64,000 bases of DNA from Candidatus Pantoea bituminis (GTDB taxonomy: Bacteria > Pseudomonadota > Gammaproteobacteria > Enterobacterales > Enterobacteriaceae): the NCBI RefSeq assembly GCF_018842675.1, contig NZ_JAGTWO010000001.1:248001-312000 (forward strand). The letters are read 5' to 3'. Position 1 is the stretch's first letter, and each line of letters begins with the position of its first letter. The translations under genes and the position numbers were made by a program. This document shows, piece by piece, positions 958 to 63,426 of this stretch. Below the pieces are notes generated by a model. The model did no database searches, was not told the origin of the DNA, and saw only the letters and a list, made by a program, of their open reading frames with translations.

Positions 958-2268
958 AATTTGAAGCTTGCCAGACCATCATTATCTTCTTCGTTTTCAG
1001 TATCGGCGTCATCCATGTCGCTTGGTCTGTCATCCTCGATAGCAACGCCTGAGAGTAACGACTGCCAGTTCATCGAACTGTTTGGCTCCAGTACGGCCAG
1101 CATATCGAGAAACCCTTTAATAGTATTGCGCGGGGTCCGGAAGTAGGCATCCCCGATAGTGTTACTGCAGTGATGAAGAAAGCCGGTGAGAGCATCGTCC
1201 GAAACAAGATATTTATCCGTATCCCCACCAGCGTATACGTGACGAAGGTTTTTCAGCAGTATAAAAAGTTCTTCTGGCGTCAGACTTGCGAGATGCAATG
1301 CCGGCGAGGAGTAATCGATGACGCCCGAACGCTGAGCAAAGCGGTTTTCGGCCAGACGGGATTGCAGCGCCTCATAACTGTAAAGGCCTTTGCGCGGGTC
1401 AAAGAGGAATTCGGGCGTACCGCCTAGGATAAACCCAAGATTTTCAGCAGAGCCCTGCAGACAGTCATTCAGGATACGCAGTATTTGCTCATAATTTGCC
1501 GTTCTCGCCTGCGTGTTGTTCAGCTTGTAGAGGTTCACCATCTCATCCAGACTGACCAGAAGTCCGGCATAGCCCGCCTGACGGACAAAGAGGCTCATCA
1601 ACTTAAGCGCATCATAGAATGAGGCGTCTGAAATAATCGTGCGGACGTCCAGATCGTTTCGGGCATCTGTTTTCGTCGTGTATTCACCCCGCAGCCAGCG
1701 AATGGCATTGGATTTCAGCACCTCATTATCCTGTTCATGCCCGCGCCAGAAAGCTTCAATAACTTTTGCAAAATCATATCCACCAACCATCTCGGTCAAA
1801 GCTTCTAGGCGTTTGTGGATCACCGCAGAAACGGCAGAGCCGTCAGCATCTGCCTCTTTTCTCGCCTCCGTTACGAAGCGCTCCACGACGCTCAGAAGCG
1901 CATTACCATCCGGCTTATTCCGGGTGGACATATTTTTCATCAGCTCAGAGTAAAGATTACGCGCCTGTCCTCCCGATGAATGGATACGTCTGTCAGGGAG
2001 AGGTCGGCGCTGACTGTGACCAGTTTTTTCTCCAGTGCTATGGAGCGCACAACACTCAGAAAAAGGTCTTTCCCGAACCATGTTCGCCGATGATTAATCT
2101 GAAACTCGCGCCACCGTCGGCTACCCTCTCAATATCCTGATGGAGCGCCGTTATTTCATTCATGCGTCCAACCTGGATATGCTGGATGCCGATTCTTGGC
2201 GTCACACCTGACTTCAGTGACTGAATAATGGCATCACGCTCTTTGGCTCTTATACGTGCTCCTGACAT
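954..2268 (-). CDS. DUF2791 / BrxC-BrxD-like P-loop ATPase (frameshifted)
   Basis: ATP-binding protein of the DUF2791 family, the family that includes BREX ATPases. ATG at 2268 lies directly after the TAA of the terB-like gene. Walker A GEHGSGKT is at residues 61-68; the LVSLDEMVNLYKL segment contains the Walker B/sensor region; GGTPEFLFDPRKGLYSY and FRTPRNTIKGFLDML are recognisable family blocks. The frame is broken twice: a five-base T run at 2060-2064 (coding sense) needs one more T, and the C run at 1996-1998 needs one more C. With both restored the protein reads through GKTFFLSVVRSIALEKKLV and ADLSPDRRIHSSGG into the long downstream frame, about 438 aa. I infer sequencing error rather than loss of function. 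It is probably the motor or switch ATPase working with the TerB-domain protein and helicase. Confidence 0.82.
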
Positions 2269-4574
2269 TTAGACTTCCTCTAATTCTTCGGCGATTTCCT
2301 GGTCTACCCATATATCATCTTCTGCATCGTCCAGCACTGGCGCATCGACCATTGTAAACGACCAGTCATTAATAACTTCAAGCGCTCCGCCCAGCATCAG
2401 CCCAAACTGTCCACACAGTTCGGTGGCTTCCTTGCGGGGCCACTGTTCTTTTTTCTGAGCTTTTTGTAAAGCTGACTGTGTGCGTGGTCCAGGCTGTCCG
2501 TCTGTGGCTGTTGATCGGTTGCGCCCTCGTGCAGCTCAGTTTCGTCTTCTGTAAAAATCGTGCTGAGCAATTTGCGCACGTCATCCGTAGCCGATTCATG
2601 CCGGGCCAGCACATTGGCATCAAGTGTAAACTCCTGCAGAGCCGGAGTTTTATGTACGAAGGCCTGTGTCTGGGGTTGGCCCGTCGCAGAATGCTGATGG
2701 ATAATGCCGGAGAGCGTGGAGGGGTCGAGCCCCAGACCTGAATAAATTTTTTCCAGCTGTCTGATTTCGGCAGCCTCGATGCGGCCATCCGAGCAGGCTA
2801 CGCTCACGATAAACTGGCCGACGGCTGCCTTTTCAGCAGAATTCAGTAACGCCAGCCTGTTTTTCATTCCCGTCATGTTGGTCGGCGTGTGAAGCTGCCA
2901 GGTCAGATATGCATGCAGGGAGCGCTTTTCATCTTCGTTAAAAAGTGCATTGTGATCGATAGCGTTTTCCAGCACAGCCCGTTCTGACTGCTCAATGCTG
3001 TTATCGATCATGGCCACGATCGCACCCAGCCGTAGCATCATGACGGCTAAGGTGAATGCCGAGGTCGGTGAGAAGCGGTGTTCGTCTCCTGCAGCAAATA
3101 ACACCAGCACACCGCCGACTTGAGCCTTCACGTGGTGATAAAACGGATCAGGCACCATGCGGTATCCCATTTTCGCGGCGAATGCCTGCATCAGGTCGGC
3201 CTCTTTTTTATTTAATTTCGTCGGGATACTCGCACCCATGTGCTCCCAGAAATCAGCAACCGAGGTCAAGCCTTCTTTACCCGCAATAACGTCATCAGCC
3301 CAGGTCCTGAATGCATTGAATACGTCGCCTGCGCTTTCCTTAATGATGTCTACTGGAAGTAACATAATCGCGGCAGTATCGTTTTCAGACGTATCTTTCC
3401 TGCCCAGGTAACGGCTGTAAGCATCCAACTCCTCTGTACACACTTCTGCCAGTGTCACAATTTTCTGGACGGGACCTTTCAGGGAGCTGGGATCAGGAAG
3501 ATCGGTAACCGGGAGCCGAACACCACGCAGGCTCGGACTTGCGGGCGCGTAATCAAGCCGCAGCCGTGTTTTGTTCGGCTTAACCACCATCCCATCCCCG
3601 TATTTGAGGGTGTATCGCCGCTTGAAAAGCATCGCAAACTCCCTCGCACAACGACGGGCCGGGGTACGCATCGCGTATTCCGCATGATGTGTCACCCACG
3701 TCAGCGCCTGATCGGCAGACACGGGTATTCCTGCATCCACCGCCTTTGCAAGTGAGAGCTTAAACATCATGCCATTGCTCAATCCAGCCTGGGTGCCAGA
3801 AGCGGCGGAGAGTTTAATCTCCGGTCGCAAGATGGTCATGGCCTCCAGCAGCTGATATGAGTAGTGGCGGAATGAGCGGTTATCAAAAAATACCGATCTT
3901 AACCGTTCAACCTCTGAAAACAGCGAGCGGAACTCAGCGTCAGAGATATTTTCATCTCTGCTGTCCACAAGGGCCCTCCTCTCCAGGCCATAGAGGTATA
4001 TAAAAACATAACCGACAGGACATGACGCATCACATCGGTCACTTGCCAGCCAGCTGAGATATGCGCCGCGAGACTCAGGGGAAAGGGAACTATATTCAGG
4101 CCAGTAACTCAGTGAACTGTCTTCGTAATGATAGGAAACTCGCTGAGTCTTAAGAGTGGCGTCTATCAGTGAGGCTTCACTGCCATCGTTATAATTTCCG
4201 CTGAGGCTTTGCCCCGGCGGCTTCATACGCTGTCCGAAATACAGGAAACCGCCAGCTATGACGACCCCTCCTGCAGAGATCTCATTACCCGGTTGTATCC
4301 ACTGAGCCAGAGCACCGGTGTTTTTTGATGCAGCCTGTCGTGGGGTGGCTGATATCCGGTACTCGACAGACCGTCCAGTAGTCAGCGTAAAAGTCGCAAG
4401 TGCATCATCTTCACTGTCGTCGTTTACCACATTATTCCCGTTGTTCTTGTTATCATTTTTCCACACTCTTGAGGGCGTTTTTTCCGCTTTGTAAGAATAT
4501 GAATTACCTGATTTGTTTTTTTCTTTTTGAAAAACAATAAATAAATCAGATAAATTGCCGCTATGAATATCCAT
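2269..4574 (-). CDS. TerB-N / TerB / TerB-C multidomain protein (frameshifted near its end)
   Basis: Large protein of about 768 aa. An N-terminal low-complexity stretch (residues 1-85) precedes a TerB-N domain with the block AQWIQPGNEISAGG (about 90-103) and the LYFGQRM segment. A TerB (tellurite-resistance/DjlA-like, alpha-helical, predicted metal-binding) domain follows at about 490-620 (MLRLGAIVAMIDNSIEQSE and SVACSDGRIEAAE), then a TerB-C tail. The frame shifts at the AAA run 2468-2470. Restoring one base gives a natural C-terminus (EQWPRKEATELCGQFG to IAEELEEV) whose TAA at 2271-2269 abuts the ATPase ATG. No signal peptide. TerB-N/TerB-C proteins are known to be linked to DUF2791 ATPases and superfamily II helicases in mobile stress or DNA-processing operons; this is a complete example. 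First gene of the operon, with only a weak ribosome site before ATG 4574. Confidence 0.8.
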
Positions 4575-4872
4575 AATTCCATGAGCAATGACCTTTGCAA
4601 TATTCGAGTTAGAACTGAAGACGCAAGTAGATTAATCTTAAAATGATACTTCTATATCTACAGGGTTAACACTAATTTCTTAAACAAGTTAACTTATTGA
4701 TATATATAAATAAACATCAATAAATATAAGCGAAGCCAGTAGGACTTACTGTAGCTAAGCTGGGCGTAACATCCGCATGGGTGAATCAATATCATGCCGG
4801 AATTCTGTTTCTGAAATTGAGAGGGATTTTGAGGCAGGATAACTGTGCGGAGATAAAAACTGCGAACTTCTG

Positions 4873-6259: not shown

Positions 6260-6993
6260 TTACTCTCTTTCAATTGAAGTTTTAACAACATGGTTAACTT
6301 TATTTCTGTGCTGCAAATGCGCTGCTTCACGCCATTCTTCCCATTGTGCTCTGAGCAATTTTCTACCTGAACCTATCGGCTCATCCAGTAAAACAATCTT
6401 TACCAGTCTGTCGGCACGAAAATGTCGGAAACCCCTTTTTTTCGCACCAGGCAATGAGAAGACAATGAGTCAGGTCATATTCAAGGACAATGGGCCAAAC
6501 GATTCTGCCGGAGAATTCGCCATCGGCGGAACGGTACTCAATTAGCAGTTTTTTACCGCAGCGTATTGCGGCTCTGAATAACCGCATATCGGTTTTATAG
6601 CTGCCTGATTCTTCAGGTTTAATAGCGTCCGCCGATTGATTTAAAAATCCCAGCATTTTTCAGGTAACACGGATGATATTTTCGACAAAACATCTTTTGC
6701 GTTGTTCGCGAGTGTGGCATCCGGCAGGTGTTGCACCAGTTCAACGCCAAGAAATACCGCCTCAAGTTCCTCGTCGCTGAATATCAAGGGTGGCATATCG
6801 TAATATGCGCTGAGTTTGTAACCAGTACAGGCCTCCCCTCAACAGGAACACGTTGTCCTGCCAGGTCAGCAATATCCCGATAAATTGTTCGCTTAGATAC
6901 CTCAAGTTCCTCCGCAAGCCTTGCTGCGGTTACCGGAAAATTTGACCGTCTGAGTATCTGGATGATTTGGAAAAGTCGATCTGCACGTGGCAT
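6260..6993 (-). CDS. YafY-like HTH/WYL-domain transcriptional regulator (frameshifted)
   Basis: DeoR-type HTH plus WYL-domain regulator. The N-terminus PRADRLFQIIQILRRSNFPV followed by SKRTIYRDIADLAGQ is the winged-helix DNA-binding part (residues 2-50). The WYL-like core IRCGKKLLIEYRSADGEFSG and the FRHFRADRL motif lie in two further frames. The frame is interrupted at three homopolymers: C run 6835-6838, T run 6656-6660, and the CCCC/T7 tract 6432-6442, which needs one base fewer. Joined, it gives about 245 aa, the normal size for this family. It is divergent from the VOC protein gene, which it probably controls. WYL proteins sense ligands or nucleic acids; the ligand is unknown. Confidence 0.65.
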
Positions 6994-7083
6994 TTTTTTG
7001 TACCTGTTGCCACCACGCTGTCAGCAGGCTTGAACGATGATACTCCAGCAAGCTGCGCTTCTCGCAGCAAAGAGGAAAGTACC

Positions 7084-15051: not shown

Positions 15052-15095
15052 TTGTGTCCTTACGGGTACGCCAGCCTAGGCGCACCCAATCACAT

Positions 15096-15620: not shown

Positions 15621-15662
15621 AATTTTCTCCCAAGGGGTTTACGGATAAGAGTGATGGGATGA

Positions 15663-16229: not shown

Positions 16230-16355
16230 AGCTGTTCCCTGTGGTTAAAAATGAATTATCCGGCGGTTGCCGGTGCTTTATTTACTGTCGGGGATAATCC
16301 TGGTATAGAATTACACATCGATAAACACACCCTGAGTCGCCACAGAGTCAACTTT

Positions 16356-17284
16356 ATGTCTACCGTGTTTACTGCCGATTCCCTGCGGGGAATTACCAAC
16401 TTCGTCATTACGGCAAAATCGAGCAGTTTTACCGAGGCTGCGGAGCAACTCGGGATTACTAAATCAGCCGTCGGTAAGAGCGTGGCACGGCTTGAGGAGA
16501 GGCTGGGAACGCGTCTTTTTCACCGATCAACGCGTAAACTGAGCCTGACGAGTGATGGAGAGGCTTACCTGACCAGTTGCCTCTCGGCGCTTGAAATTCT
16601 CGACTCTGCCGAGAATACGCTCAGCAGACGTCAGGAAAATCCCGCTGGGACGGTCCGTATTGATATGCCTGCGTCTTTCGGACGGAATCTGATGATGCCG
16701 GTATTAATCGAGAAAATGACCCGCTACCCGGCCCTGCGGCTGGCGCTAACTTTCAATGACCGTCTTATTGACCCGGTGGAGGAAGGCGTTGACCTGGTTC
16801 TGCGACTGGGAGAGCTACAGAGTACCGATGAGCTGATCGCCCGTCGGCTGAGCCGGCAGCGGCTTATCCTGTGCGCCTCTCCAGCCTATCTTGAGCAGAA
16901 CGGGCTGCCGGCCGAAATGGAGGATTTGAAAAGCCACTACTGCATTATGGGCTACCGTCGGGGCGCCCCCTTGCCTGGCGGCTGCGAAAGGCCGGGGAGC
17001 GTGAAGTGAAATATATATCCCCCACAGCACATCAGATAAGCGACGGAGATGCCATGATTCAGGCCTGTCTGGCTGGCGTGGGGCTAGCGCAGTTTCCTGA
17101 GTCTATGGTTAACAGCCATATCGCCGCAGGCAACCTGATTTCCGTGATGGCAGATCATGCCCCCATCCCGGTTGAGTTGAACGTCATCTGGCCCCGAACA
17201 AGGCACCTCATACCCAGAGTTCGCCTAATCGTTGACGCACTGCTGAAAAAGGCCGGAGAAGGCTATTTCGGTTCGCTTAGGTAG
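16356..17284 (+). CDS. LysR-family transcriptional regulator (frameshifted)
   Basis: About 310 aa. HTH at residues 5-64 (ITNFVITAKSSSFTEAAEQL, then KSAVGKSVARLEERLGTRLF), then a periplasmic-binding-like effector domain. The frame slips at the CC pair 16974-16975. Adding one C turns GAPLPGGCERPGS into PLPWRLRKAGEREVKYI and joins the downstream frame ending at 17284. ATG 16356 (MSTVFTADSLRG) is preferred to the in-frame 16251 because LysR proteins begin just before the HTH. It is divergent from the ChrR-like reductase, and an MFS exporter follows; it probably controls one or both. Confidence 0.82.
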
Positions 17285-17445
17285 ACTTTTTGTCGTCACT
17301 GAGGAGATACCAGGGCCGTTTATCGCCTTTTAGCAAACTTATATCCTTATCGTCCCGCTGCTTTAATTGCCTTACGGGCTGAAACCTTCCCGTCTGCCGG
17401 AGCAGTTAAAACGTAAAACATAATGTTACTTACAGGATATTTGTT

Positions 17446-18614
17446 ATGCCATTAGCTCTATGGGCGCTGGCGATAGGTGCATTCGGTATCGGAACAACTG
17501 AATTCATCATTGCCGGGCTGCTCCCCGTCATTGCCGTTGATTTTAACGTCACCATCCCCGTTGCCGGCTACCTGGCGACCTCATATGCGCTGGGGTCTTC
17601 GTCGGCGCACCGGCCCTGATTATTCTGGGTTCAAAAGTCCCGCGTAAAGCCATGCTGGTTTTCCTGATGCTGCTCTTCGTGGCAGGTAACCTGGTGACGG
17701 CGTTTGCCCCGACACTTGGCATTGCCATACTAGGCAGAATTATTACCTCGATGACGCACGGCGCTTTCTTTGGCCTTGGTTCGATTATTGCAGCAGATAT
17801 GGTTGCACCGTCTAAGCGCGTGAGGGCCATTGCGTTCATGTTTATGGGGCTGACCGTAGCAAACCTTATAGGCGTACCCGCAGGCACCTGGATAGGTCAA
17901 CACCTCTCCTGGCGTGATGCCTTTATGGCCATAGCCGTGATAGGGGTCATTACGGTTATCAGTATCGGAATGCTCATCCCGCACCAGCCAAAACCCCATA
18001 ACCAGAGATTTGCGCATGAGTTTAACGCCTTCAGAAACGTCAACGTGCTGCTGGCAATGGGTATTACTGTTTTCGGGCCGGGGGCATTTTTTACATCAAT
18101 TACCTACATCGCGCCAATGATGACGGAGCTGGCAGGATTTAGTGAAAGCAGCCTCGCGTGGCTGATGCTGCTGTTCGGACTGGGATTGTTTACGGGAAAC
18201 CAGCTTGGTGGCCGGTATGCCGATCGCGCTCTTATGCCGATGCTCTACATCACGCTGGCTGCTCAGGCCGTCGTGTTACTGGTATTCAACTTTACGGCGC
18301 ACAGCCAGGTTATGTCAGTTCTCTGCATTTTCCTGATGGCTGCGTTTGGATTTGCGACAGTTTCACCTATCCAGAAACTGGTGATGGATAAAGCACGGGC
18401 AGCGGGTGCCCCCACGCTGGCCGCTGCGGTTAATATTGGTCTTTTCAACCTCGGTAATGCCGTAGGAGCCTGGCTGGGTGGCGCAGTGATTGCTGCGGGA
18501 TTCGGTCTGCAATCGCCAAATTGGGCAGGCGCTATATTGTCTGTCATTGCACTGATACTTGCGGTGTTGTCCGGTCTTACGGATAAAACCGGGCACGCTG
18601 CAGAGATGAATTAG
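17446..18614 (+). CDS. MFS efflux transporter, AraJ/YdhP-like (frameshifted)
   Basis: About 390 aa, 12 membrane segments, DHA1 drug-efflux type. It begins PLALWALAIGAFGIGTTEFI followed by GLLPVIAVDF, the typical AraJ/YdhP start, and contains GRIITSMTHGAFFGLGSIIA. The frame breaks at the GGGG run 17592-17595; one more G gives YALGVFVGAPALIILG and restores a continuous protein. Substrate unknown (sugars or drugs in the family). It is downstream of the LysR gene on the same strand. Confidence 0.83.
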
Positions 18615-19319: not shown

Positions 19320-20602
19320 CTACTTCTGAAGATCCTTATGTTTACGTATTTTGGCTGGTGGAAATACAGGGATCATTGCCGTATCTGGCGAGTTATACGC
19401 ATCCCAGTGCCACCAGCCTGCTGTACCATAGCGGGAATTATAGATCGCCATCTTCTGGTTCTTTCTGATGACATACTCAGGCGTACCCATACCAAACACT
19501 TCCATCGGAAGGTGGTTTGTTTCAGTATCCAGCAAATGAAAATCAGCAAACACATCATCTTCTTCGGAATCGTATCGAAGTGGTTTCATAAAGCTTCGTT
19601 TTTCAGCAGCCAGCTTTTCCTCGATAATTCCTTCCAGTGAGGAATCCAGTGGTATCCACCGGGAACTGACGTACATCAAAGCCATCCTCAGCACCTTTGC
19701 CTCTCTGCCTACAGGTACGTCAGTCAGGGCAATAAGGATAACCCGCTCTCCTCGTTTCCAGGCTGCATGTTCTGAGGGATGCCGTCTGAGGGTTTCTTGC
19801 CAGGTTCCGGCATCAGTTTCAAGTTTCGGTAGACCAGCAAAATCTCTGACGGGTACGTGTGTGTTTGCAACTTCGCGTTCTTCATTCCACCCGGCCAGTG
19901 AGGTAATGACAACAAGCCTCTTTTTTGCAGATGCCGCTGAAGCCAGTTTATCGCTGTTGGCCTCAGCCTGCGGTGTCGCGTTTTGAGCACCGATCAGCAA
20001 AACATCGCTCAACCGGGTGCGACCGGCACGTACGCGGCCTGCTGCCTGTTCCAGCCAGCCATGAACCGAGCCGGTGAATCGTTTATTCTTCATTGCAGGA
20101 TGCCAGACGTTAAGTCCCGCCTCCGTCCAAAGAAGGCTCAACAGCCCCAGCAGTTTCATAACCGACTGTGTCTTTCCCCCGCCTGAATACCAGGAGGTCC
20201 GTCTCCTCTTGGTTGCCGATCAACGGGGTTCTCGCCATCAAGGGAAACGGCAAGCTGTACTCTCAGTGTGCCATCGATCTCTTCTTCCACTACTCCCTCT
20301 GTATAGCTTTGTTGTCCACTAATCGAGGCTGATGAGTACCAGACACATTCCGGGAAATGCTCAATGCCACTGTTGCTGAACCGGCTGAGATGATATCTGC
20401 CAGATTCTTTTCGCAGCCGGATTGCAAACCTGCGGTCACCCGTGCCCGGACAGCAGCACTGCACGAGTGGATCATGACCGTGATGTTGTTTCAGAACGGA
20501 TTGCCATGATCTGACGAATTTCTCTTCTGTCTGAAATCCCACGCTGTAAGACTTCGTTTCCCCACTACGGGTAATATTAATTTGGTACCGGTTCTTTTTC
20601 AC
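19320..20602 (-). CDS. DUF1173 family protein (frameshifted)
   Basis: About 427 aa. The N-terminal part (from ATG 20602) has the cysteine-rich QCCCPGTGDRRFAIRL block and the FPECVWY segment. The C-terminal part has LLSLLWTEAGLNVWHPAM, then a helicase-like tail with AAGRVRAGRTRLSDVLLIGA. Both parts fit DUF1173, a family found mainly on integrative elements and plasmids and of unknown function. The frame is broken at the CC/GG pair 20211-20212; one more base gives PVDRQPKRRRTSWYSGGGKT running into MKLLGLLSLLW. It is divergent from the HNH-nuclease gene (168 bp apart), so the two may be one functional unit. Confidence 0.75.
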
Positions 20603-23467: not shown

Positions 23468-23497
23468 ATCGTCTGCTATGAGTCAGAAGCGGCGAGG
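23468..23497. repeat. Dispersed imperfect palindrome, copy 7
   Basis: Arms ATCGTCTGCT and AGAAGCGGCGAGG around ATGAGTC; a degenerate copy. (The split copy 6 is described under 21516-21966.). Confidence 0.45.
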
Positions 23498-23631
23498 TAG
23501 GGAGTGGTAAAGCGCCCCTGAAAACATTGTGATTTCGCGTTTTTATACAGCCTGGGCCGCCAGCAGACGCTGAGAGAATGGCTGATCGTGCTAAAAAAGC
23601 TGCGACTTCGATATCGAGCGCATCCTGTAAG

Positions 23632-24541
23632 TTAGGATTTCACTGCTGAGCGCAAGAACTCTACAAATGCGCGTACTCGCGCTGATAGATGACGATTCTG
23701 GGGGTAGAGAATCGAAAACGGGCGAGAGCGGCCTCCATATTTTTGAAGGACCTCTACAAGGACTCCACGCCTTAAAGCGTCTCCCACGGCAAAGCGATAG
23801 GTTTGATAAAGGCCTCCGCCCGCGTTAACCCAAGCGACAGCCCCTAACGCATCATTAAGTACACGCATCCGGCTCGTTATCTGTTTCTCGATTGAAGTAC
23901 CTGACTCATCGGTGAACAGCCACTGCAGTGGGCGCCCTGTATTCGGTGATATGTACTGGATGCAATCGTGTTGATTGAGGTCATCAATACGGTATGGTTC
24001 ACCTTTTTTGCAAGGTATGTCGGCGTTCCGAATACCCCAAGCGAGGCGTCCTCAAGCTTGAAGGCGACAAGACGCGAATCTTGCAGAACGCCTAGCCTAA
24101 TTGCCAGGTCAAAACCCTCTTCAACAAAGTCGATTATTTTGTCCGAGATACTAATCTCGATATCGATCTGCGGATAAAGCTCAGTGAACTTGGGCATTAA
24201 GGGTAAAAGGCGAAACGTGCCGTAAGCAGCACTGACGCTAATGCGTAGCGGTCCGCTAGGGACGGTTTGTGAACCCGTGATCGCTCGCTCAGCCTCGGCG
24301 ATCTGCTCAAGCGCCAGATGACATTCTTTCCAATAGAGCTCGCCCTCAGCTGTAAGCTTGACGGCGCGGGTGGTCCGCAAAAAAGACGTACTCCGAGGCG
24401 CTGCTCGAGCCGACTGATCGACCGACTGACTGCGGCCGGCGTCAAACCGAGAATCTCAGCCGCACTGGTGAAGCTGCCGGTCTCCGCTGCTCTACAGAAC
24501 TGTTCAATGCTGCCAAGCTGAAGTGGATTACCCGCTGCCAT
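23632..24541 (-). CDS. LysR-family regulator of the GST locus (frameshifted twice)
   Basis: About 303 aa. HTH: GSIEQFCRAAETGSFTSAAE then LTPAAVSRSISRLEQRLG; the effector domain runs through ISVSAAYGTFRLLP and the C-terminal FSILYPQNRHLSARVRAFVE. Two breaks: the six-base A run 24379-24384 (one more base gives VRLFLRTTRAVKL) and the six-base T run 24004-24009 (one more gives YLAKKGEPYRIDDLNQHDCI). Both restore textbook LysR sequence, close to the CrgA/DsdC-type regulators of glutathione transferases. It is divergent from the GST gene. An alternative start codon lies at 24553. Confidence 0.8.
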
Positions 24542-24706
24542 ATTGATTACCATTTGTAATAAATGAATTGATTATTACATGGTTTATCAACCAGGAACAA
24601 CGCATTAAGGTACATCTACTGCTTCAACAACAACGCGACAAGGCCGCGCTACTCAAGCAGTGCACGGTTTTGGCTTACACCTCTACATACTTTTAGGAGC
24701 TACACT

Positions 24707-25404
24707 ATGACCAGCAAACTGAACGTTTTCACTTCGCCTTCGGCTTTCCCTAACCCACAGCGCCTGCGCCTGTTCATGCATGAAAAAGGGATCGCTGATC
24801 AGTTCCATGAGACAGTTTATGACATGACGCCGGTTGGCGAACAGCGTGGATGGCGTCACTTGAAAATGAATGCCTGGGGTGAGACGCCGACCCTCGAGCT
24901 TGCTGATGGTAGCTATATCTCCGAAACTGCAGCTGTCGTCCGTTATTTGGACCAGTCCTACCCCGGCCGCAAGATCATGGGGGAGACGCCGCTGGAACAG
25001 GGCCTGGACAACATGTGGGATAACCGCATCTGGGTTCACATCCTGTATCGAATCGTCACGGCTTTCCACGTTCTGCATACCGGTCTCGGCTTCAAACTCG
25101 AACTGACGAAGAACGAAGCCTGGGGCGAACACTGCCGCAAAGAAGCATTGGCCCATGCTGCACTGGTCAACAAACATCTTTCGGACGGACGCCAATGGCT
25201 GCTGGGGGCGACGAGCCTACTTTCGCCGACATCACGCTGGCAACCGCGATCGCGTTCTCGAAGTTCCCGGTGAATGCTACGCCGCTGGACGAACGATTCG
25301 AGTTCCTGGACGCCTACTGGCAGCGCTGGCAGCAGCGTCCAAGTTTCCAGGCTGCATATGCAGACCGTAGCAGCGGTATCCCTGAGCTCGATAACAAGGC
25401 GTGA
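24707..25404 (+). CDS. Glutathione S-transferase family protein (frameshifted)
   Basis: About 232 aa, cytosolic GST fold. N-terminal thioredoxin-like domain: FTSPSAFPNPQRLRLFMHEKG (S in the usual catalytic position) and GETPTLELADGSYISETAAV, with the glutathione-binding E-T/S motif. The C-terminal helical domain has PTFADITLATAIAFSKFPVN. The frame slips at the five-base G run 25204-25208; one more G gives QWLLGGDEPTFADITLA, the standard GST motif. The ribosome site is TTTTAGGAGCTACACT. Divergently controlled by the LysR gene, and followed by a perfect stem-loop (25420-25447). Confidence 0.83.
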
Positions 25405-32227: not shown

Positions 32228-32536
32228 TTAACACATTATGCAAAAGCTGAGGCAGATTATGTGGGCGGTTACGAGGCGGGATTAAGGCATTTTTTTGATC
32301 AGCCTGCGCATTGCTTTCCCGGTCGCAGACGACGATAAGGCATTGTTCCGAACTGACAACAGACGAAATAAAGCAGGCTGCTGCCAGGACACGGGCACCT
32401 GCAAACCGAGATGCGCTCATCAATCATTTCATGGCGGCCAGCGGCCTGCTCAGCCATGATTATGTTGTTGCCTGCAACCGTGCCCTAACTCCCTAAATGC
32501 ACCGTTGCTCCCAAGAATCATTGAAGAGAGGTATTG

Positions 32537-33195
32537 ATGGCTAACGTATTTATCATTGGTGGTGCTGGGAACATAGGTTATCGCCTGTCATCCCTGCTCG
32601 CCAAAAAAGGGCACACTGCTCGCCCGCTTTATCGCAAAGATGACCAAGAGCCGTCGTTGCGCCAGATTGGTGCCGAGCCGGTAAAAGGCGACCTGACGAA
32701 ACTGGATACCGGATCACTTGCATCGCTGATGGCAGGAAGCGAAATTGTGGTTTTTCAGCCGGTGCAGGGGGAAAAGGCGGAGAGGAAATGACGAATGCTA
32801 TCGATGGCGAGGGGTTAAAAACCGCCGTTGCCGCTGCAAGCCAGGCCGGGATCACGCGCTTTTTGCTGGTCTCCGCATTCCCGGAAGCCGCCAGAGGAAA
32901 AGGCCTTCCGGCTAGCTTTGAAAATTACATGCGCGTCAAAAAGATGGCAGACGTCGCGCTTGCGGAAAGTGAACTGGATTGGGTGATTTTACGGCCCGGA
33001 ACGCTGACTGATGAGAAAGGTAGCGGACTTGTTCGTGCCGGCCTGGCGATCCCCTATGGCGATATTTCCCGTGATGATGTCGCGATGACACTGCTGGAAA
33101 TCATAGAACAGCCTGATGTCAGCCGCATCATTATTGAACTGACGGGTGGAAGTGTACCCGTGCGTGAAGCTATGCAGCGGATGGCAGCGCGATAA
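32537..33195 (+). CDS. NAD(P)-binding NmrA/atypical SDR oxidoreductase (frameshifted)
   Basis: About 220 aa. Rossmann start VFIIGGAGNIGYRLSSLLAK (GGAGNIG dinucleotide motif), then LVSAFPEAARGKGLP and LDWVILRPGTLTDEKGSG, the YhfK/NmrA-like core (no YxxxK). The frame breaks at the five-base T run 32751-32755; one more T gives VVFSAGAGGKGGEEMTNAID. ATG 32537 follows AGAGAGGTATTG. It lies downstream of the alpha/beta hydrolase on the same strand, separated by 300 bp without a gene. A perfect 11-bp stem-loop (33229-33255) follows. Confidence 0.8.
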
Positions 33196-34764: not shown

Positions 34765-35396
34765 TTAGGGCAATTTCGCCCTATTCAGATAGGTACAGAA
34801 CATTATTATCAGCTGTTCCTGCAACTGACTGTTGAGAAGCTCCGGCCGATTGCGGTCAAAAAAGTCCGCACGGTTCCAAAAAGCACGTTCAATAAGGTCA
34901 CGTTGAGAGAGGAAAGGTTCTGAAATTTCGCATCCGATGCTGAAGCAAGCATCCCTTCACTGGCTACCTCAATGCGCCGACACATGCTTTCAACAATATC
35001 ACTCACGTCGATTTCAGCAGCTGCGCGATAAAGTGCGCAGGTAACGTCATAACGTTCTGTTTTAATGTTGATGTATTCACTGATAACGCCCTGAACCATT
35101 TGGGTATACGGGGCGCCCTGCAAGGTCTCACATACTTTTTCAATTCGTCCGGCGAGATGGTCTAAATAGTGATCAATCAATGCAAAGAACAGCGCCTGCT
35201 TGTTAGGAAAATATTGGTAAAGCGAACCCACCGACACCCCTGCCCGCTCGGCTACTCGCGTAGTGGTCAATTGCGAGGTTCCACTACTCAGTAAAACCTG
35301 AATAGTGGCTTCGAGAATAACGTCGACGGTAGCAGCTGATCTTCTCTGGCGCGGTGATCTACGCGGGTTATAGCTGGACAGGGTTTTCAACGTCAT
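34765..35396 (-). CDS. TetR/AcrR-family regulator (frameshifted near the C-terminus)
   Basis: About 211 aa. HTH: DVILEATIQVLLSSGTSQLT then ERAGVSVGSLYQYFPNKQAL (residues 25-70), very typical of TetR regulators beside SDR genes. The frame breaks at the A run 34858-34863; one more base changes RTFLTAIGRSFST to RTFFDRNRPELLNSQLQEQL and extends to a TAA at 34765. It is divergent from the SDR gene, with an inverted repeat (35410-35454) between them that is the likely operator for both. Confidence 0.8.
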
Positions 35397-36463: not shown

Positions 36464-38030
36464 TTATTGAGAACTTTTGGTGATATTCACAGGCTGTCTG
36501 GTATTTATTTGGCCATCATTTGGTGTATCGAATATATTTCGGCACACGGCGCTATTACCCCAACACTGCTCGTAAACGTGTCCCGTAAGCTCTTCGATAA
36601 CGGCGCGAGCTTCGGGGTCAATTTCACTGATTTTCCCCCTGCTTTTATACGCGACACTTCGTTGAGAACCACCAGATGTGTTTTGCGATTTAACTTCATT
36701 TGATAGCTGAAAACCATCGACATAAAAGCAAGGCTGATCACGCCAATGCCAAAGACCATGGCTATCGCCGTGACAGCACTTTCAGGCTGGGTATGGGATT
36801 TAGACTGGAAACCGTAAAAACTCAGGATTGCCCCCATTGCGAAGACAATGACCGAACGCATTAACCTTCCTGAGAAGGTCATCGCTCCAGCATAGATGCC
36901 CTCACGACGGCGGCCAGTAAATACTTCATCAATATCTGCCAGGAATGTGTAAACCGTCCAGGGAATGTAGTACACACCGCCGGTACCGATACCGAAAATT
37001 ACCGTGATAGTTAACATGGCTACAGTGACATACTGTTGCGGTAGTTTAAGGAAATGCAGCAGGCTATAACAAATAACGGCGAATACAACAATACAGAGTG
37101 CCCAGATATAAGGTTTACTGAAACCGTGCTTTACACAGATACCGATAAAGATCGCTGTAGAGAATAATTGAAGAATGGAATTAAGGCTGTTAAGCCCAGC
37201 TACCATGGCGGGATCGTACTGTAATACGAATATTATAAAATAGGTGAAGACAGAGGCAAATAGCCACTCTGCACCAAATCCGCAAAGGTACATTCCTAAG
37301 TGCTTACGAAAAACGCGCAGATGAAAGGTCGATTTCATGTCCCGCACCAGCGTTATTGCTGTTTTCGCTAAACCTATTTTCTTCTCTTCGGCTATCGAGG
37401 TTTCTTCTACTGGCCGTTCCCACGAATAGAAATAGAGTAACCCAATAGCGATAAACAGAATAACGCCATAGGTTAAAGCGGTAAAAAAGAAGGGCTGCGC
37501 AGAGTCTTTGCCGTAGATCAAAATGAACTGGCCCGGAATTAAAGCAGCCAGGAAGTTAGCTATCTTACCGAAAATGGCTTTGTAACCGGTAAGTTTAGAG
37601 CGAGCGGAAAAATCGGTCGTCATTTCTGTCGCCAGCGTTTCATACGGCACCATCACCGACGTATAAATCAGCTCGAATAAAACATAAGTAGATAAGTAAT
37701 ACCAAAAACCAAAGCCCTCTATCCACAAGAATGGATAGAACATCATCAGGGGTATGCCGAGTAAAATGAAAAATCGACGTCGGCCAAAACGTTTGCCAAG
37801 TCGCGTTTTGCCAAAATTATCAGAAAGATAGCCCATCAAAGGGTTACTTACGGCGTCAATGATGCTTGCGACAGAGAAAATAACTGAAGCCTGTAAAAGC
37901 GTCAGCCCACAGAAGGTGGTGTAAAAATACAATAGCCAGATGCCGGCGATAGCCAGAGCCCCGCTACCGAGTAGATTCCCTCCTCCGTAAGCAAGTTGAT
38001 GTCTGAATAGAATTCTTTTTCTACGTTCAT
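36464..38030 (-). CDS. togT: Oligogalacturonide transporter TogT-like, GPH cation symporter family (frameshifted twice)
   Basis: About 522 aa inner-membrane symporter importing pectin-derived oligogalacturonides. Restored N-terminus MNVEKRILFRHQLAYGGGNL then LGSGALAIAGIWLLYFY, a GPH-family hallmark (one A missing in the T/A run 38016-38020); restored C-terminus from GGKISEIDPEARAVIEELTG to TAA at 36464 (one base missing in the T run 36631-36634). Core blocks DAVSNPLMGYLSDN and YYIPWTVYTFLADIDEVFTG are GPH-type. It is divergent from ogl, each with a KdgR-like palindrome. Other tog or kdg genes are absent from the window. Confidence 0.82.
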
Positions 38031-38447: not shown

Positions 38448-38514
38448 ATTTAAATTATGTAAATTATCCTATTTATTTCAGTGAGTTAATGTAAAGCCAC
38501 TCATGGAGAACATC

Positions 38515-39692
38515 ATGGCCAAGGGTTCAAGCATTCAGTTTAACTTCTCTACATTTAAGGATCCGAAAACCGGCGCCTCTGTTACACGCTTAACGCCTCC
38601 CGATGTCCTGTGCCATCGCAATTATTTCTATCAGAAATGTTTTACCAACGAAGGTAATAAAATACTTTTTGCGGGGAGTTTGATAAAAATCGCAACTACT
38701 ATCTTCTTGATTTAAGTTCGCAAAAAGCCATTCAACTCACAGAAGGGAAAGGTGATAACACTTTTGGCGGCTTCCTTTCACCTGATGATAAGTTCCTCTA
38801 TTACGTTAAAAACGAACGTAATCTATTACGCGTTAACTTAGATGATTTAAGTGAGGATATTGTTTACCAGGTACCAGATGAATGGGTTGGATACGGTACT
38901 TGGGTGGCAAACAGTGAATGTAATAGTTTAGTAGGCATTGAAATCAGCCGTGAAGACTGGAAACCGCTGTCTGACTGGACCATATTTCAGGCGTTTTATC
39001 ACAGTAATCCACATTGTCGTCTGCTAAAGATTGATCTACTGAGTGGCAAATCGAAGGTAATACATGAGCGAAATGAATGGCTAGGACATCCCATTTATCG
39101 GCCGTTTGATGATAATACCGTCGCATTTTGTCATGAAGGACCTCATGACCTTGTTGATGCACGCATGTGGTTAATGGATTCAGAGGGCAATAATGTCCGT
39201 AAGGTAAAATCACATGAGTCCGGTGAAAGCTGTACACATGAGTTTTGGGTGCCTGACGGATCGGCGCTGATTTACGTGTCGTATCTTAAAGGTCAGCATG
39301 ACCGATATGTGCGCCGCTATGATCCGGTCACTCACGAAGATACGTGCTTGATGAAGATGCCTGCATGTTCGCATCTCATGAGCAATGAAAACGGCACAAT
39401 GCTCGTCGGCGATGGCTCTGGTACTCCTGTGGATGTACAAGATACTACCAGCCATACGATTGAAAATGATCCGTGGTTATATTTATTTGATGTTAAAACA
39501 CGCCAATATACGCCGCTTGCGGCACATAATAGTTCATGGCGCGTTCTAGATGGCGATCGCCAGGTCACTCATCCTCACCCTTCTTTCTCCCCAGATGATC
39601 GTCATGTCCTGTTCACCACAGACTATGAAGGATTACCTGCGTTATACCTGGCAGAAATCCCTGATGCGATGCGTCAAGCTCTCAGAGAATAA
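38515..39692 (+). CDS. ogl: Oligogalacturonate lyase (frameshifted)
   Basis: About 393 aa. Cleaves unsaturated digalacturonate to 4-deoxy-L-threo-5-hexosulose uronate in the cytoplasm (EC 4.2.2.6), feeding the KdgR-controlled pectin pathway. Seven-bladed beta-propeller. LTPPDVLCHRNYFYQKCFTN (near the N-terminus), HPIYRPFDDNTVAFCHEGPH, and HTHPSFSPDD-like VTHPHPSFSPDDRHVLFTTD carry the Mn-binding His and Gln region of the family. The frame breaks at GGGG 38673-38676; one more G gives FAGEFDKNRNYYLLDLSSQK. ATG 38515 follows GGAGAACATC. A hairpin terminator follows at 39728. Confidence 0.88.
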
Positions 39693-52289: not shown

Positions 52290-53969
52290 CTACCTCCTTT
52301 TCAGCTCAGTAACGTCAACGCCGTAATCGCGCAGCGCGCCCGCTTCGGTGATGTAACCTTCCTGCAGATCCCACAAAATCGCCTGCTGATCACGCTCGCC
52401 GACCGGCATTTTTCCGCCGCCGCCGGGCATCTGAATGGTGATTTCATCGCCCGGTAACACGTCATGACGACCCACCGGTTTTGCCAGCGACTCGCCATTG
52501 ATGGCGACATAGTTCGGCGCGCCCGCAGACGCACCCAGTACACCTTCAGCCGCGTGTTTCTGTCGCGAATAGAACATACTGTGAGAAAGCGGAAATTTGC
52601 TGGTATTGCGAATCACCATGCGCTGTGCCACGCCGCCGCGATAGCGCCCTGCCCCCGGAATCGGGCACAATTGCTTTTTGCATGAACAGCAACGGTGTAG
52701 CCGACTCGATCAGCTCAACCGGTGTTGATGACATATTGCCTGGAAAGCCGGTCACAATGCCGTCAGCAGCAGGACGGGCGCCGGTTCCGCCGTTAACGCA
52801 CAGGCTTTCAACAAAGCGCCGACCATCATCAAACTGGCCGGCGAAAACGTCACAGGTCACAGGCGCGCTGCCGGAGTGTCCCATTACCCGTTCGGGCATG
52901 ATTTCGGAAAGCGCAGTAAAGATCGCGGCGTGCGCCATGTGCCCCACGCGGTTACGCATCTCCACGGCGCAAGGCGGTCGTGCATTGGCAATAGAGCCTT
53001 CCGGCGCTGTCACCCTAATTGATTTAAAACAGCCTTCGTTGTTGGGCAAATTTGGCTCAAGCAGGCACTTCAGTGGGTAGACGCTGTAGGCATAGGTAAA
53101 GGACATTGGGCAGTTGCTGCCGAACAGCGATTCAGCCGATGAGCCCGCATAATCAATCGTGATATTGCTGTCATCGACAATTACTGCCACGTTGAGATGG
53201 ATATCACCTTCGTAATCGCCAATGTCCACAGCCGCTTCGTAACGCCCGTCCGGCACCGCCTGAATCGCTTTACGCATCGCATTTTCTGTCAGCGCATGGA
53301 TCTTCTCCGCCAGCGGCGTGACAGAGTTCAGTTTCAGATCGTCCATCAGCCCAAGCAATCCATTGGCACCAATCTGGTTGGCGGCCAGCATTGCGTGCAA
53401 ATCACCCTCAACCTGATCAGGTGAACGCACGTTGGCGAGGAACAGATCCAGCAATTGCTGGTTGACCTCTCCCTCGATCATCAATTTGCTTGGCGGGATC
53501 AAAAATCCCTCTTCAAACATGTCTCGCGAGGACCCCATATTCAGCGATCCGCCAATATCAGACATGTGCGCAGCGGCGCCAGTGAAAGCCACCAGCTTAC
53601 CGTCACGGAATACCGGCGTTACGACGGTGACATCATTTAAGTGGCCAGTGCCCAGCCACGGATCGTTGGTGATTAGGCTGTCACCAGGCTTCAGCGTTTC
53701 CGCCGGAAACTTCGCCAGCAGATGTCGCACCGTAGCGGGTAACGTACCAATGAACACCGGTACGCTGGTTTTAGGCTGTGCCAGCGAACTGCCGCTGGCG
53801 TCCATCAGCAAACACGAATAATCACCCACTTCGCGAATGATGCTAGAGAACGCCATATTCACCAGCGTGGCCGCCGCCTCTTCGGAAATACTCACCAGGC
53901 GATCCCAGGTAATGCGCAGGCTGATCGGGTCGTCCAAAAACGCAGATTATCGGGGGTTGCAACAGTCAT
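52290..53969 (-). CDS. hyuB: Hydantoinase B / 5-oxoprolinase beta-like subunit (frameshifted twice)
   Basis: About 560 aa, HyuB family (ATP-dependent N-methylhydantoinase, 5-oxoprolinase or acetone-carboxylase-like). NMAFSSIIREVGDYSCLLMD, ITNDPWLGTGHLNDVTVVTP, and the C-terminal RYRGGVAQRMVIRNTSKFPL and MPGGGGKMPVGERD. Two breaks: A run 53936-53940 (one more base gives MTVATPDNLRFLDDPISLRI) and the C/G run 52652-52656 (needs a two-base gain or one-base loss to give PDSGG-GRYRGG). ATG 53969 overlaps the hyuA stop (TGATG), a normal coupled pair. Forms the amidohydrolase complex with HyuA. Confidence 0.83.
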
Positions 53970-56053
53970 CAGTTCAGCTCCATCAAAATATTGCCTTGTT
54001 CATCCAACTGCGCCCAGGCGCCCGGACCGACGTAGATAGCACACTCTTTTTCCTGCAGCAGCGCCGGTCCCTGCACCGCTTCCCCGTTACCAACAGGCTC
54101 CGAGGGATAACGCGACAGGAACTAAAACCCTGTTCACGGCCCAGATAGACCTGCAAGTTTTTTCCACAGCATCCGGTACTGGGTGGCTCAGTTGATCAGT
54201 GGTGTTGAGTTTTGGCGGCGTGGTTTGCACTCGACCGCGCCAGTTCACCACTTCAACGCCCTGTCCCGGCAACGTACGGCCAAAGCGCGTCAGATGTGCT
54301 GCTTCAAACGCGTCGATCAGCGCCTGCACATTACCCTCTGTAAGGAAAGCTTCGGGTAGCGTTACTGTCAGTTCAGAACCCTGACCGACGTAACGAACGC
54401 CAGCCAGTTTCTGCTGCACCGCGCTGGCGGGATCGGCATTGGCAGCAGCTAACGTTGTCATCGCTTCATCAAAGCCTTCTGCGAACACCGCATTGATGCG
54501 CGTGATATCCACACCGGGTAACAGGCGACAGCGATCGCTTCGCACAAAGTCAGCGCTCGGCGGCGCCGTCAGCAAGCCAAACGCGGAATAGACGCCCGCA
54601 CCATTGGGGAAAAAGACCTTTTTCACACTCAGCTGTTTTGCCAGCGACCAGGCGTGGCTCGGACCAGCGCCGCCAAAAGCGAGCATGGTCATCTGCGACG
54701 GGTTAACATTTTTTCCACCGAATGGGTGCGCAGCGCTTCGGACATTTTACTGTTGGCCACTTCATGTATGCCCCACGCGGCATCTTCAATGCTCAAACCC
54801 AGCGGTTCTGCAATGCGGCGAATCGCCTGGCGTGCAGCGTCAACGTCCAATTGCATACGCCCACCAAGAAACGCATCCGGATCCAGCAGACCCAATACCA
54901 GATTGGCATCCGTTACCGTTGGACGATCGCCGCCTCGGGCATAGCACGCCGGGCCAGGCCAGGCGCTGGCGCTTTCCGGGCCAATCTCCAGCAGCCCAAG
55001 AGAATCGACACGGGCGATACTGCCGCCCCCAGCGCCAATCTCAATCATGTCCACCACCGGTAACTTCACCGGCAGCCCGCTGCCTTTCAGCAGACGATCC
55101 GCGCGACCGACTTCATAATCCGTGGTAATTGAAGGTTCGCCGTCGCGCACTACGCAGGCTTTCGCGGTGGTGCCGCCCATATCAAACGCCAGAACCTGAC
55201 GCTCCTGATTTTTGCGGGCAAACGCCGCAGTCGCCACAATGCCGCCCGCCGGGCCGGACTCGATAATCCGCGTGGGATAATCCGCAGCGACCTGTGGCGC
55301 CATTAATCCGCCGTTAGATCCCATTACCAGCCAGTCACAGGTAAAGCCGCCTTCGCGTAGCTTGTTCTCTAGCCGCGCCATGTAGCGGCGCGCTTTGGGC
55401 TGAACAAAGGCATTCATCGCCGTCAACACGCCACGATCGTATTCACGAATCTCACGTGACACGTTGTGTGATACTGAAATCGAGATGCCTGGCAACTCGC
55501 GGCTGAGAATGGCTTCAATTTGATTCTCATGTTCCGGCCAGGCATAGGCATGCATGCATAGCACCGCGACCGCTTCATATTTTTGCTCACGTAACTCAGC
55601 GGCCAGCCGCACGACCTCGGCCTCATCCAGCGGCGTGATGATTTCACCCCGCGCTGTCACGCGTTCGGAGATCTCATACGCCTGCGAACGGGGCAGCAGC
55701 GGCTGTGCCGGTGCGCCGTTTAGGTCATAGATGTCGTAGCGGTATTCACGCCCCAGCACCAGCACGTCCCTAAAACCTCGCGTCACTACCAAGGCGGTTT
55801 TCGCACCGTGCCGCTCCAGTAAAGCATTGATCGCCAGCGTGGTCCCGTGAGTGATGGTGTAAATGTCACTTGCCTGCAAACCGGCCAGCTCAACGAGCTG
55901 CGTCAGGCCGGTATAAGCGCCTTCAGAAGGATCCTCCGGCGTGGTGAGCGTTTTATGACGAATGGCTTCGCCCGTCGTGTCATTTAGCAGCACCAGATCG
56001 GTAAAGGTGCCGCCGATATCAAACCCTATACGCCAGGGTGACGCGTTTTTCAT
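53969..56053 (-). CDS. hyuA: Hydantoinase A / 5-oxoprolinase alpha-like subunit (frameshifted three times)
   Basis: About 695 aa, HyuA family ATP-binding subunit. Actin/HSP70-like phosphate motif RIGFDIGGTFTDLVLLND (residues 8-25), THGTTLAINALLERHGAKTA, IESGPAGGIVATAAFARKNQ, and the second phosphate motif LAFDMGGTTAKACVV. Breaks at T run 54709-54714 (restored: KNVNPSQMTMLAFGGAGPSH), T run 54159-54164 (restored: KNLQVYLGREQGFSSCRVI) and GGG 54104-54106 (restored tail: VQGPALLQEKECAIYVGPGA, ending LMELN). ATG 56053 follows GAGGTCATT. It phosphorylates a cyclic amide for ring opening. Confidence 0.83.
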
Positions 56054-61250: not shown

Positions 61251-62228
61251 TTATTTCATTGTCGCCAAAATTTCTCTAATTGAGCGGTCGATCTGATCTG
61301 CAATCTCTTTCGGCAAACGGCTGAACTCATACTGCACAGTGCGCTTCTCTTCATTGGTTTTACGACGTGCATAGGTATTAGCCGTGGTAAAACTTGCCAA
61401 TTTTTCTGTAACTGCTTTATTGATCTTAACAGGCGCTTTTAGTTGCCGTTTCGTCGCTTTGAAGAATCCCAGGATTGCAGACTTCTTCTCGTCAGCATTG
61501 CTGGTGTTTGGCAACTCAGCTTCGGTGATCTTTTCCTTAACCTTCGCGATTACATCTGTAATGTCGACAGCTTCCGCTTTCGCCTCTTCCCAAACATCCA
61601 ATAGCAGTTGATAGTCCTGAAGCGTCAATTCTGAAACCACCGGGAACAGCTCAATAAATTCCACTGGCACTGCGGCGGCTTGAAAAGCACGCGTCACCTT
61701 GGCATTAGAGATACCTTCAGCTTTGGCAATATCGCTTTTGCTCATGCCTGCTTCATGCAGCAACATGAAGCGCAAACCTAACTCGCGTAGGTTGTGCTCT
61801 TTAGCTGTCTGTATATCTGCAGCTAGCTGGCGCGCATCGCTGATATCGAGTTCGTCTACGGTAGTCAGGACTTCAAGGCTGGCACCGGAGAAAAGACAAG
61901 CCGCTCGACGACGCGAACCATCCATGATTTCAACACGATCGCCCTTCATACGGCCAATCGCTGGAAAGAACTGCTGTAAGGTGATAGTCCGCGTAATGTC
62001 TTTAACGGACTCTTCCGTCAACGTTTTTTGGTCACGTCCATTGATCTGCGGATCAACAAAAGTTTTCGCTTCAATATCATCATGTGGCACTAACTGACGA
62101 ACAAAGGTCGCTGTTTTTCCTGACTTCAGCGTGAAGACGCGAGACTGGCTACTGCTGTCGATCATACTCGCGATCGCTGATTGGCCAAGGGTTCGGCCGA
62201 TGCGCTTTAGTTGTTTTGGATCGCTCAC
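61251..62228 (-). CDS. parB: ParB-family plasmid partition protein
   Basis: 325 aa centromere-binding CTPase of the P1 ParB/F SopB type. The N-terminal arm is followed by the ParB/Srx core with GRMKGDRVEIMDGSRRRAAC (Arg-rich GxRR motif, about residues 92-111), central HTH AGMSKSDIAKAEGISNAKVT, and a basic C-terminal dimerisation domain. The start is a GTG at 62228 overlapping the parA TGA (GTGA). It shows that this DNA is a low-copy plasmid. Intact. Confidence 0.9.
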   Translation of the reverse strand: MSDPKQLKRIGRTLGQSAIASMIDSSSQSRVFTLKSGKTATFVRQLVPHDDIEAKTFVDPQINGRDQKTLTEESVKDITRTITLQQFFPAIGRMKGDRVEIMDGSRRRAACLFSGASLEVLTTVDELDISDARQLAADIQTAKEHNLRELGLRFMLLHEAGMSKSDIAKAEGISNAKVTRAFQAAAVPVEFIELFPVVSELTLQDYQLLLDVWEEAKAEAVDITDVIAKVKEKITEAELPNTSNADEKKSAILGFFKATKRQLKAPVKINKAVTEKLASFTTANTYARRKTNEEKRTVQYEFSRLPKEIADQIDRSIREILATMK

Positions 62229-63426
62229 AGCGTGCTCCTGATATATTCAATGCGGTCAAAAACAGCCCGTGAGAACTGCTCAGCTTCATGTTTGGCTTTA
62301 CGTAATGCGTCCGCACTACCAGGATAAGAAGAAGGATTTGCACTTATCACAGTATCAAAGGATTCACCGCAGCGCTCAAATCCATCCAATCGCGGTAAAC
62401 CGCAGTCCAGCATTGATTTGGTAAAAACTTCGCGCGCGTAGCTCTGAGAGGTTAAATGGTCATGCTTAGACGTCATCTTCGACATAAAGCCAATATTAGC
62501 TTTAAGTCGCGGCTCAACCCTTCTGACTCGATGCGCTCAAGCATTTCCGGTAGGCGCGTCAGGTACTTCATCGTTGAATGGAAATCAACTTGTGCAGGCG
62601 GTGTCGGTGTAAGCAGAACATCACTGGCGGCGATGGCATTCAACATAAAGGAGTCAAGATGCGGACCCGTATCAAGGAAGATAAAGTCGTAGTCGCCTGC
62701 CAGGCGATCAATCACATTTCGACGCAACACTTCTGAAGGTGCAACTCCTGGTAAATGTTCCGCAACCAGCTCTTCCCAATCGCTGGCCACAAAGCCGTCA
62801 TCAATTGAAGCAGGTATAACATCAACGCCTGGCATGACTGTCGGTTTGATGAATTGAGCACGCAACTGATCCGCATCCAGATCGTTAAGCATCGCTTGGG
62901 CAGCCGTCTCGAGTACAGAACCGACGCTGTTGGTATGGCTTAAGAACATGGTGCTGGATGCCTGCGGGTCAAGATCGATGACCAAAATGCGCAAATCGTT
63001 GTGCAGCATGGACGGATGGGCGCGCATACCATGAGCAAGCGTGACAGTGCTGACGGTTTTAGACACGCCACCCTTGAGGCTCACCACAAATACAACGAAT
63101 GGCCCTTCATGCTTATCGCGGTACTTTGGCACTTTGCGATGCTGATAGATGTCGATGACGTTTTGTAAGCTCAGTGCGTATTGTGAAGTGCTGCCCGTTT
63201 GCTTTTTACCAAACTGATAACCGGCTTCTTCCATATCATTTATGGCAGCAACGACAGCGTGTTTACTCAGCAAAGGCATGTTAGCTACAGCGTTGCGGGA
63301 AAAAGTTTGATAAAAGCTTGTTTGATTAAATTCCTGCCGCTGCTGTTCAATGTGACTGCTTAACCCGTGCAACATGGAATTAGCACGCGTCGCCATCTCC
63401 AGCACACCACCGTAATCACGCTTCAT
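62225..63426 (-). CDS. parA: ParA-family partition ATPase (frameshifted)
   Basis: About 400 aa, P1 ParA/SopA type with an N-terminal DNA-binding extension (residues 1-100, winged-HTH region LSKHAVVAAINDMEEAGYQF). Deviant Walker A VVSLKGGVSKTVSTVTLAHG (KGGVSKT), Walker A' and B ILVIDLDPQASSTMFLSHTN and FIFLDTGPHLDSFMLNAIAA. The frame breaks at TTT 62501-62503; one more base gives RDLKANIGFMSKMTSKHDHL and joins the C-terminal frame. ATG 63426 follows TGAGGTGCTT. Because parA is needed for stable inheritance, the break is probably a sequence error. Confidence 0.87.

What the first reader, a model, noticed from the sequence alone, without database searches (positions are those of the whole stretch)
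1990..62503. About 25 one-base homopolymer indels break 17 genes, including parA: likely consensus error, not pseudogenes
By reading adjacent frames I restored continuous proteins at these runs: 1996, 2060, 2468, 6432 (one base too many), 6656, 6835, 16974, 17592, 20211, 21094, 24004, 24379, 25204, 32751, 34858, 36631, 38016, 38673, 42476, 52652 (size unclear), 53936, 54104, 54159, 54709, 62501. All but one or two need exactly one extra base in a run of two to seven identical bases. Real decay would also give stops, large deletions and insertions at random sites. Loss of parA in an otherwise intact parAB operon would destabilise the plasmid.
Basis: partly seen in the sequence, partly recalled or inferred. 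Interest (0 to 1): 0.75.

Follow-up and report, generated by a model that had tools for sequence, protein, structure and literature searches.

The report
Missing-base assembly errors mimic broken genes
The "broken" genes on this Pantoea-type plasmid are almost certainly errors of the assembled sequence, because the same kind of break also hits chromosomal genes that a cell cannot live without; it is an ordinary artefact, but a warning about this genome's predicted proteins.

Summary
Four positions are off by 8-21 bases, and at least one break (about 4517) was missed. The interpretation also holds. In the same assembly 14 of 85 core chromosomal genes that were found are broken (7 of 51; 7 of 34), among them rpoB, dnaN, leuS, rpsB, rplC and ftsI. 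Relatives G003, G005 and G006 have 0 of 51 broken, and G008 0 of 35. Of 37 breaks placed by alignment, 25 lie at runs of five or more identical bases (2.0 expected). A/T runs of eight or more number 14 in 1,705.5 kb of this genome, against 31 in 517.3 kb of six relatives. parA is intact in 17 of 18 examined relatives; the 18th breaks at another site, in another error-rich draft. The cause is most likely genome-wide shortening of homopolymers in the consensus, a well-known error of long-read assemblies. Sequencing platform and reads were not available, and a few true indels cannot be excluded.

The parts
957..2268 (-). SngB-like ATP-binding protein gene in three frames; two breaks, near 1996 and 2060
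   Evidence: Pantoea vagans protein matches at 95%, 82% and 91% identity in three frames; PADLOC SngB model E=1e-139 on the largest piece
2272..4582 (-).
6329..6999 (-). YafY-type regulator (HTH_11 + WYL); break near 6835 confirmed, 6656 and 6432 supported
16356..17281 (+). LysR-family regulator; break near 16966
   Evidence: Rahnella homologue 93% and 91% identity in two frames
17446..18614 (+). MFS transporter; break near 17592
   Evidence: Rahnella homologue 98% and 98% identity in two frames
19320..20602 (-). DUF1173-family gene; break near 20211
   Evidence: Pfam PF06666 in both pieces; homologue at 40% and 48% identity
20746..21515 (+). HNH-endonuclease-like open frames; break near 21094 not confirmed
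   Evidence: HNH model matches only the piece behind the site; homologue match to the front piece not significant
23635..24553 (-). second LysR-family regulator in three frames; breaks near 24004 and 24379
   Evidence: Rahnella homologue 95-98% identity in three frames, also relative G008
24707..25401 (+). glutathione S-transferase gene; break near 25204
   Evidence: Rahnella homologue 98% and 98% identity in two frames
32525..33195 (+). NAD(P)-binding (PF13460) gene; break near 32751
34809..35396 (-). TetR-family regulator; break near 34858 supported only
   Evidence: homologue at 54% identity up to 34866
36521..38019 (-). sugar transporter (MFS_2); break near 36631 confirmed, 38016 at the start not testable
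   Evidence: Rahnella homologue 88% and 69% identity in two frames
38485..39692 (+). oligogalacturonate lyase gene; break near 38673
   Evidence: Pfam PF14583 positions 1-56 and 52-385 in two frames
52296..53970 (-). hydantoinase B-type gene; breaks near 52652 (two bases short of the relative) and 53936
   Evidence: Pantoea sp. SOD02 homologue
53972..56053 (-). hydantoinase A-type gene; breaks near 54083, 54159 and 54709
   Evidence: Pantoea sp. SOD02 homologue
62228..63426 (-). parA; break near 62518
   Evidence: homologue 95% and 97% identity in two frames; intact in 17 of 18 examined relatives
61251..62228 (-). parB, unbroken

Best explanation
The breaks are errors of the assembled consensus. 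Reads, or the software that built the consensus from them, lost one base (sometimes two) from runs of identical bases all over the genome, as long-read assemblies without accurate-read polishing do. Each loss inside a coding run shifts the frame and splits one gene into two or three open frames. parA and the other listed genes are most likely whole in the organism. Shown: frame breaks at homopolymers, nearly all shortfalls, in the window and in core chromosomal genes; depletion of A/T runs of eight or more. Inferred: the platform (long-read, probably nanopore-type) and that every single window break is an error.
For: 14 of 85 found core chromosomal genes are frame-broken in this assembly (7 of 51; 7 of 34 found of 48 queried), against 0 of 51 in G003, G005, G006 and 0 of 35 in G008. 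25 of 37 break segments hold a run of five or more, 2.0 expected. All 25 chromosomal and 10 of 12 window breaks fall in the one-base-short class; the other two resolve to a two-base and to two neighbouring shortfalls. A/T runs of eight or more: 14 in 1,705.5 kb here, 31 in 517.3 kb of six relatives, 20 in 360.6 kb of E. coli K-12. Third-position share of differences is 78.8% before and 78.6% behind the first break, no in-frame stop in 3,137 compared codons. parA intact in 17 of 18 examined relatives. The profile matches published descriptions (passages).
Against: No reads or platform information were available. The window's break rate (12 in 22.3 kb) is about three times that of the chromosomal sample (25 in 132.0 kb, p=0.008), more than its 1.3-1.5-fold higher density of runs of five and six explains; a few true indels could add to it. 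Eight of 37 break segments hold no run longer than three. G+C runs of six or more do not separate this genome from relatives. One search also lists 24 places where the window has one base more than some relative: 17 lie outside the genes, 3 are against the error-rich G004, 4 lie in genes against single or distant relatives.
Confidence: 0.97

Rival explanations
1. True decay: the listed plasmid genes are recent pseudogenes, inactivated by replication slippage at homopolymers.
For: Plasmid genes are dispensable; slippage in cells also favours homopolymers; the break rate in the window exceeds that of the chromosomal sample.
Against: The same breaks hit core chromosomal genes. No in-frame stops in 3,137 compared codons and equal third-position share on both sides. 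Nearly all breaks are shortfalls, where decay would give gains too.
Confidence: 0.02
2. The runs are truly short and the cell rescues the genes by transcriptional or translational slippage, as described for poly-A tracts in insect endosymbionts (recalled).
For: Most break segments contain homopolymers, and essential genes are hit.
Against: Runs are short (mostly 4-6; none above 8 in the sampled 1,705.5 kb), include G and C, and sites differ from gene to gene. The genome is 5.2 Mb, not a reduced one, and relatives of the genus have unbroken genes. G004 shows the same signature at other sites.
Confidence: 0.01

Closest known systems
Homopolymer indel errors of long-read bacterial assemblies (passages of PMC8011154, Homopolish, and PMC12007338, Kastor)
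   Same: Frame-shifting indels in homopolymers, mostly false deletions at runs of about two to eight with most at four to five, A/T above G/C, surplus of false pseudogenes, genome-wide
   Different: Nothing tested differs; platform of this assembly unknown
Relative G004 (Candidatus Pantoea haifensis EnvH by shared 31-mers)
   Same: 10 breaks in 51 core genes, no A/T run of eight or more in 109 kb, its own parA frame-broken
   Different: parA breaks at residues 108-119 and not 304-309; two stops inside aligned stretches of core genes, none in ours in the same test

Membership tests
Homopolymer consensus error of an assembly | Breaks sit at homopolymer runs | tested here: met
   25 of 37 segments with a run of five or more, 2.0 expected
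Homopolymer consensus error of an assembly | One-sided: bases missing, not gained | tested here: met
35 of 37 in the one-base-short class; remaining two resolve to shortfalls.
Homopolymer consensus error of an assembly | Genome-wide, essential genes included | tested here: met
   14 of 85 found core genes; other plasmid contigs 4 breaks in 16.4 kb
Homopolymer consensus error of an assembly | Long runs depleted in the whole record | tested here: met
   A/T runs of eight or more 0.8 per 100 kb against 3.3-9.4 in six relatives; G+C runs inconclusive
Homopolymer consensus error of an assembly | Reads disagree with the consensus | not testable with these tools
   no reads held
True pseudogenes | Confined to dispensable genes | tested here: not met
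   rpoB, dnaN, leuS, rpsB, rplC, ftsI and others broken
True pseudogenes | Stops and relaxed constraint behind the break | tested here: not met
   very recent decay would not show either
True pseudogenes | Same break in independent relatives, if old | tested here: not met
   parA: 17 of 18 examined relatives intact, the 18th broken elsewhere; other genes compared with one to three relatives each

The most novel reading that the evidence does not exclude
The short runs are real, and this bacterium makes working RNA polymerase, DNA clamp, ribosomal proteins and ParA through genome-wide slippage at short homopolymers.
Probability: 0.01. Interest if true: 0.9.

Novelty: not a real feature. Interest (0 to 1): 0.12.

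Why it matters
Users of this genome would count false pseudogenes and miss whole proteins. At 25 breaks in 132 kb of chromosomal coding sequence, a rough extrapolation is several hundred to about a thousand affected sites in 5.2 Mb. Two cheap checks, scarcity of runs of eight or more and split core genes, would flag such records; G004 fails both, and G001 has split core genes too.

Tried and rejected
Tried: link of breaks to methylation-type motifs. CCWGG in 2 of 37 contexts (1.2 expected), GATC 1 of 37 (3.1 expected), CCNGG 3 of 37 (2.3 expected): no enrichment. Tried: break rate on other plasmid contigs; only 15 genes, 16.4 kb, usable. Tried: references for the EamA pieces; the Klebsiella record fetched had only a partial gene and was not used.

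Weak points of the counts. (27 breaks in 133 ORFs) used some antisense ORFs and was replaced. The 141 ORFs are mechanically picked E. coli ORFs plus 51 annotated genes; at least one lies in an rRNA gene and some starts differ from annotation, so essential genes were recounted with annotated starts. Of 48 queries, 14 were not counted: dnaE, infB, ftsH and obgE partial or absent in the fetched stretches, ten without a hit; only 1.4 of 4.0 Mb of the chromosome was fetched. Of 23 annotated proteins aligned to the window, three (a regulator, LysO, FCD) had no usable match and drop out of the 20; the DEAD helicase is cut by the window edge. The automatic placement put the LysR and hyuB breaks some 10-30 bases from where DNA alignment puts them. 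L075, L103 and L155 are one relative (Pantoea sp. SOD02). G001 and G004 were kept out of the pooled run-length controls because they have breaks themselves; G001 has 1 A/T run of eight or more in 44.1 kb, G004 0 in 109 kb. In one search, 18 of the 67 loci were examined (those with ParB at 64% identity or more). Essentiality of the named genes is recalled E. coli knowledge. Papers: passages only of PMC8011154 and PMC12007338; the other papers as listings.

Full report
What the window is. The window is bases 248001-312000 of contig C1 (354 kb) of a 5.22 Mb genome in five contigs; C4 (4.01 Mb) is the chromosome and C1, C2, C3 and C5 are plasmid-sized. Completeness is listed as 95.96%. The genus is that of Pantoea sp. 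SOD02: the relative G003, marked 'same genus', has a contig of 926,844 bases, the length of plasmid pSOD02, and gives the same matching coordinates.

Observation. Proteins of annotated relatives were aligned to the window by tblastn. Of 20 with a usable match, nine are split between frames (SngB-like ATPase, SngA-like protein, LysR, MFS, second LysR, GST, HyuB, HyuA, ParA) and eleven are not (part of a DEAD helicase, VOC, phytase-like, AraC, MBL, TetR, aminotransferase, SDR, second MFS, RraA, ParB). Relatives' open frames, Pfam models and further homologues add the NAD-binding protein, the oligogalacturonate lyase, the sugar MFS, the DUF1173 protein and the YafY regulator. In all 19 of 25 listed sites are confirmed, 3 supported, 3 not confirmed. 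DNA alignment moves four sites by 8-21 bases and shows one unlisted break near 4517.

The decisive test. If these were real losses, essential chromosomal genes of the same assembly should be whole. They are not. With E. coli K-12 proteins as queries, 7 of 51 genes of the ribosomal-protein, rpoBC and cell-division clusters are frame-broken here (rpsE, rpsH, rplV, rplD, rplC, rpoB, ftsI). The same 51 are unbroken in G003, G005 and G006, and the 35 found in G008 are unbroken. G004 has 10 breaks in 51, and G001 5 breaks in 49 found. A second set gave 7 broken of 34 found (rpsB, fabZ, ispU, dnaN, leuS, mrdA, lnt). A cell without RNA polymerase beta subunit, DNA clamp or leucyl-tRNA synthetase does not live, so these breaks are in the record, not in the organism. 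The window's breaks, of the same type and in the same assembly, are most simply explained alike.

Signature. Of 37 breaks placed by alignment, 25 segments contain a run of five or more (2.0 expected) and 29 a run of four or more (6.3 expected); eight contain no run longer than three. All 25 chromosomal breaks and 10 of 12 window breaks are one base short; the other two resolve to a two-base shortfall and to two neighbouring shortfalls. Without any reference, A/T runs of eight or more number 14 in 1,705.5 kb of this genome (0 in the window, 2 in 240 kb of other plasmid stretches, 12 in 1,401.5 kb of chromosome), none longer than eight. Six relatives have 31 in 517.3 kb and E. coli K-12 has 20 in 360.6 kb, while runs of five to seven are not scarcer here than in those relatives as a whole. 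G+C runs of six or more are too variable among relatives to decide. G004 again resembles this genome: none in 109 kb. Methylation-type motifs are not enriched at breaks.

Selection. In the nine split genes, differences from the relative fall on third codon positions in 78.8% of cases before the first break and 78.6% behind it, with no in-frame stop in 3,137 compared codons (25 residues at each end of every aligned stretch were left out). The pieces behind the breaks evolve as translated sequence. This excludes old decay; very recent decay is made unlikely by the essential genes.

parA. The ParA frame breaks at residues 304-309 of 400. In 18 relatives examined of 67 loci found, parA is intact in 17. 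The exception, Candidatus Pantoea haifensis EnvH, shares almost all 31-mers with G004 at this locus and breaks at residues 108-119, a different site in another error-rich draft.

What remains open. The window's break rate, 12 in 22.3 kb, is about three times that of the chromosomal sample, 25 in 132.0 kb (p = 0.008), more than its 1.3-1.5-fold higher density of five- and six-base runs explains. Other plasmid contigs show 4 in 16.4 kb. Lower plasmid coverage, or one or a few real indels, may add to it. In one search the window also has one base more than some relative at 24 places, 17 of them outside the genes, 3 against G004, 4 in genes against single or distant relatives; none of these four belongs to a listed break. 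Only reads can settle single sites.

Known kind. Passages of two papers describe this error: homopolymer indels that shift frames and create surplus pseudogenes in nanopore assemblies (PMC8011154), and mostly false deletions at runs of two to eight, most at four to five, A/T above G/C (PMC12007338). The platform of the present assembly is inferred.

Noticed in passing
1-4582: Three adjacent genes match PADLOC models SngC, SngB and SngA (E=3e-128, 1e-139, 3e-75), which I recall as the Shango anti-phage system; SngB and SngA are split by the frame breaks here.
   Followed up: partly
G004 core-gene loci L118-L120 and G001 loci L121-L123: Two other species-representative genomes of the same genus also have frame breaks in core genes (10 in 51 and 5 in 49 found); G004 also lacks long A/T runs.
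   Followed up: partly
15059-18739 and 23492-25475: Stretches 93-95% identical to Rahnella plasmids beside Pantoea-type stretches at 75-88%, which points to a mosaic plasmid with exchange between genera.
   Followed up: no
39803-40505: Intact mdtI- and mdtJ-type small efflux pair, above the NCBIfam cut-offs.
   Followed up: no
27586-28716: Beta-lactamase-fold (PF00144) protein, far below every NCBIfam class C beta-lactamase or AmpH cut-off shown, so its role is open.
   Followed up: no
   Followed up: partly
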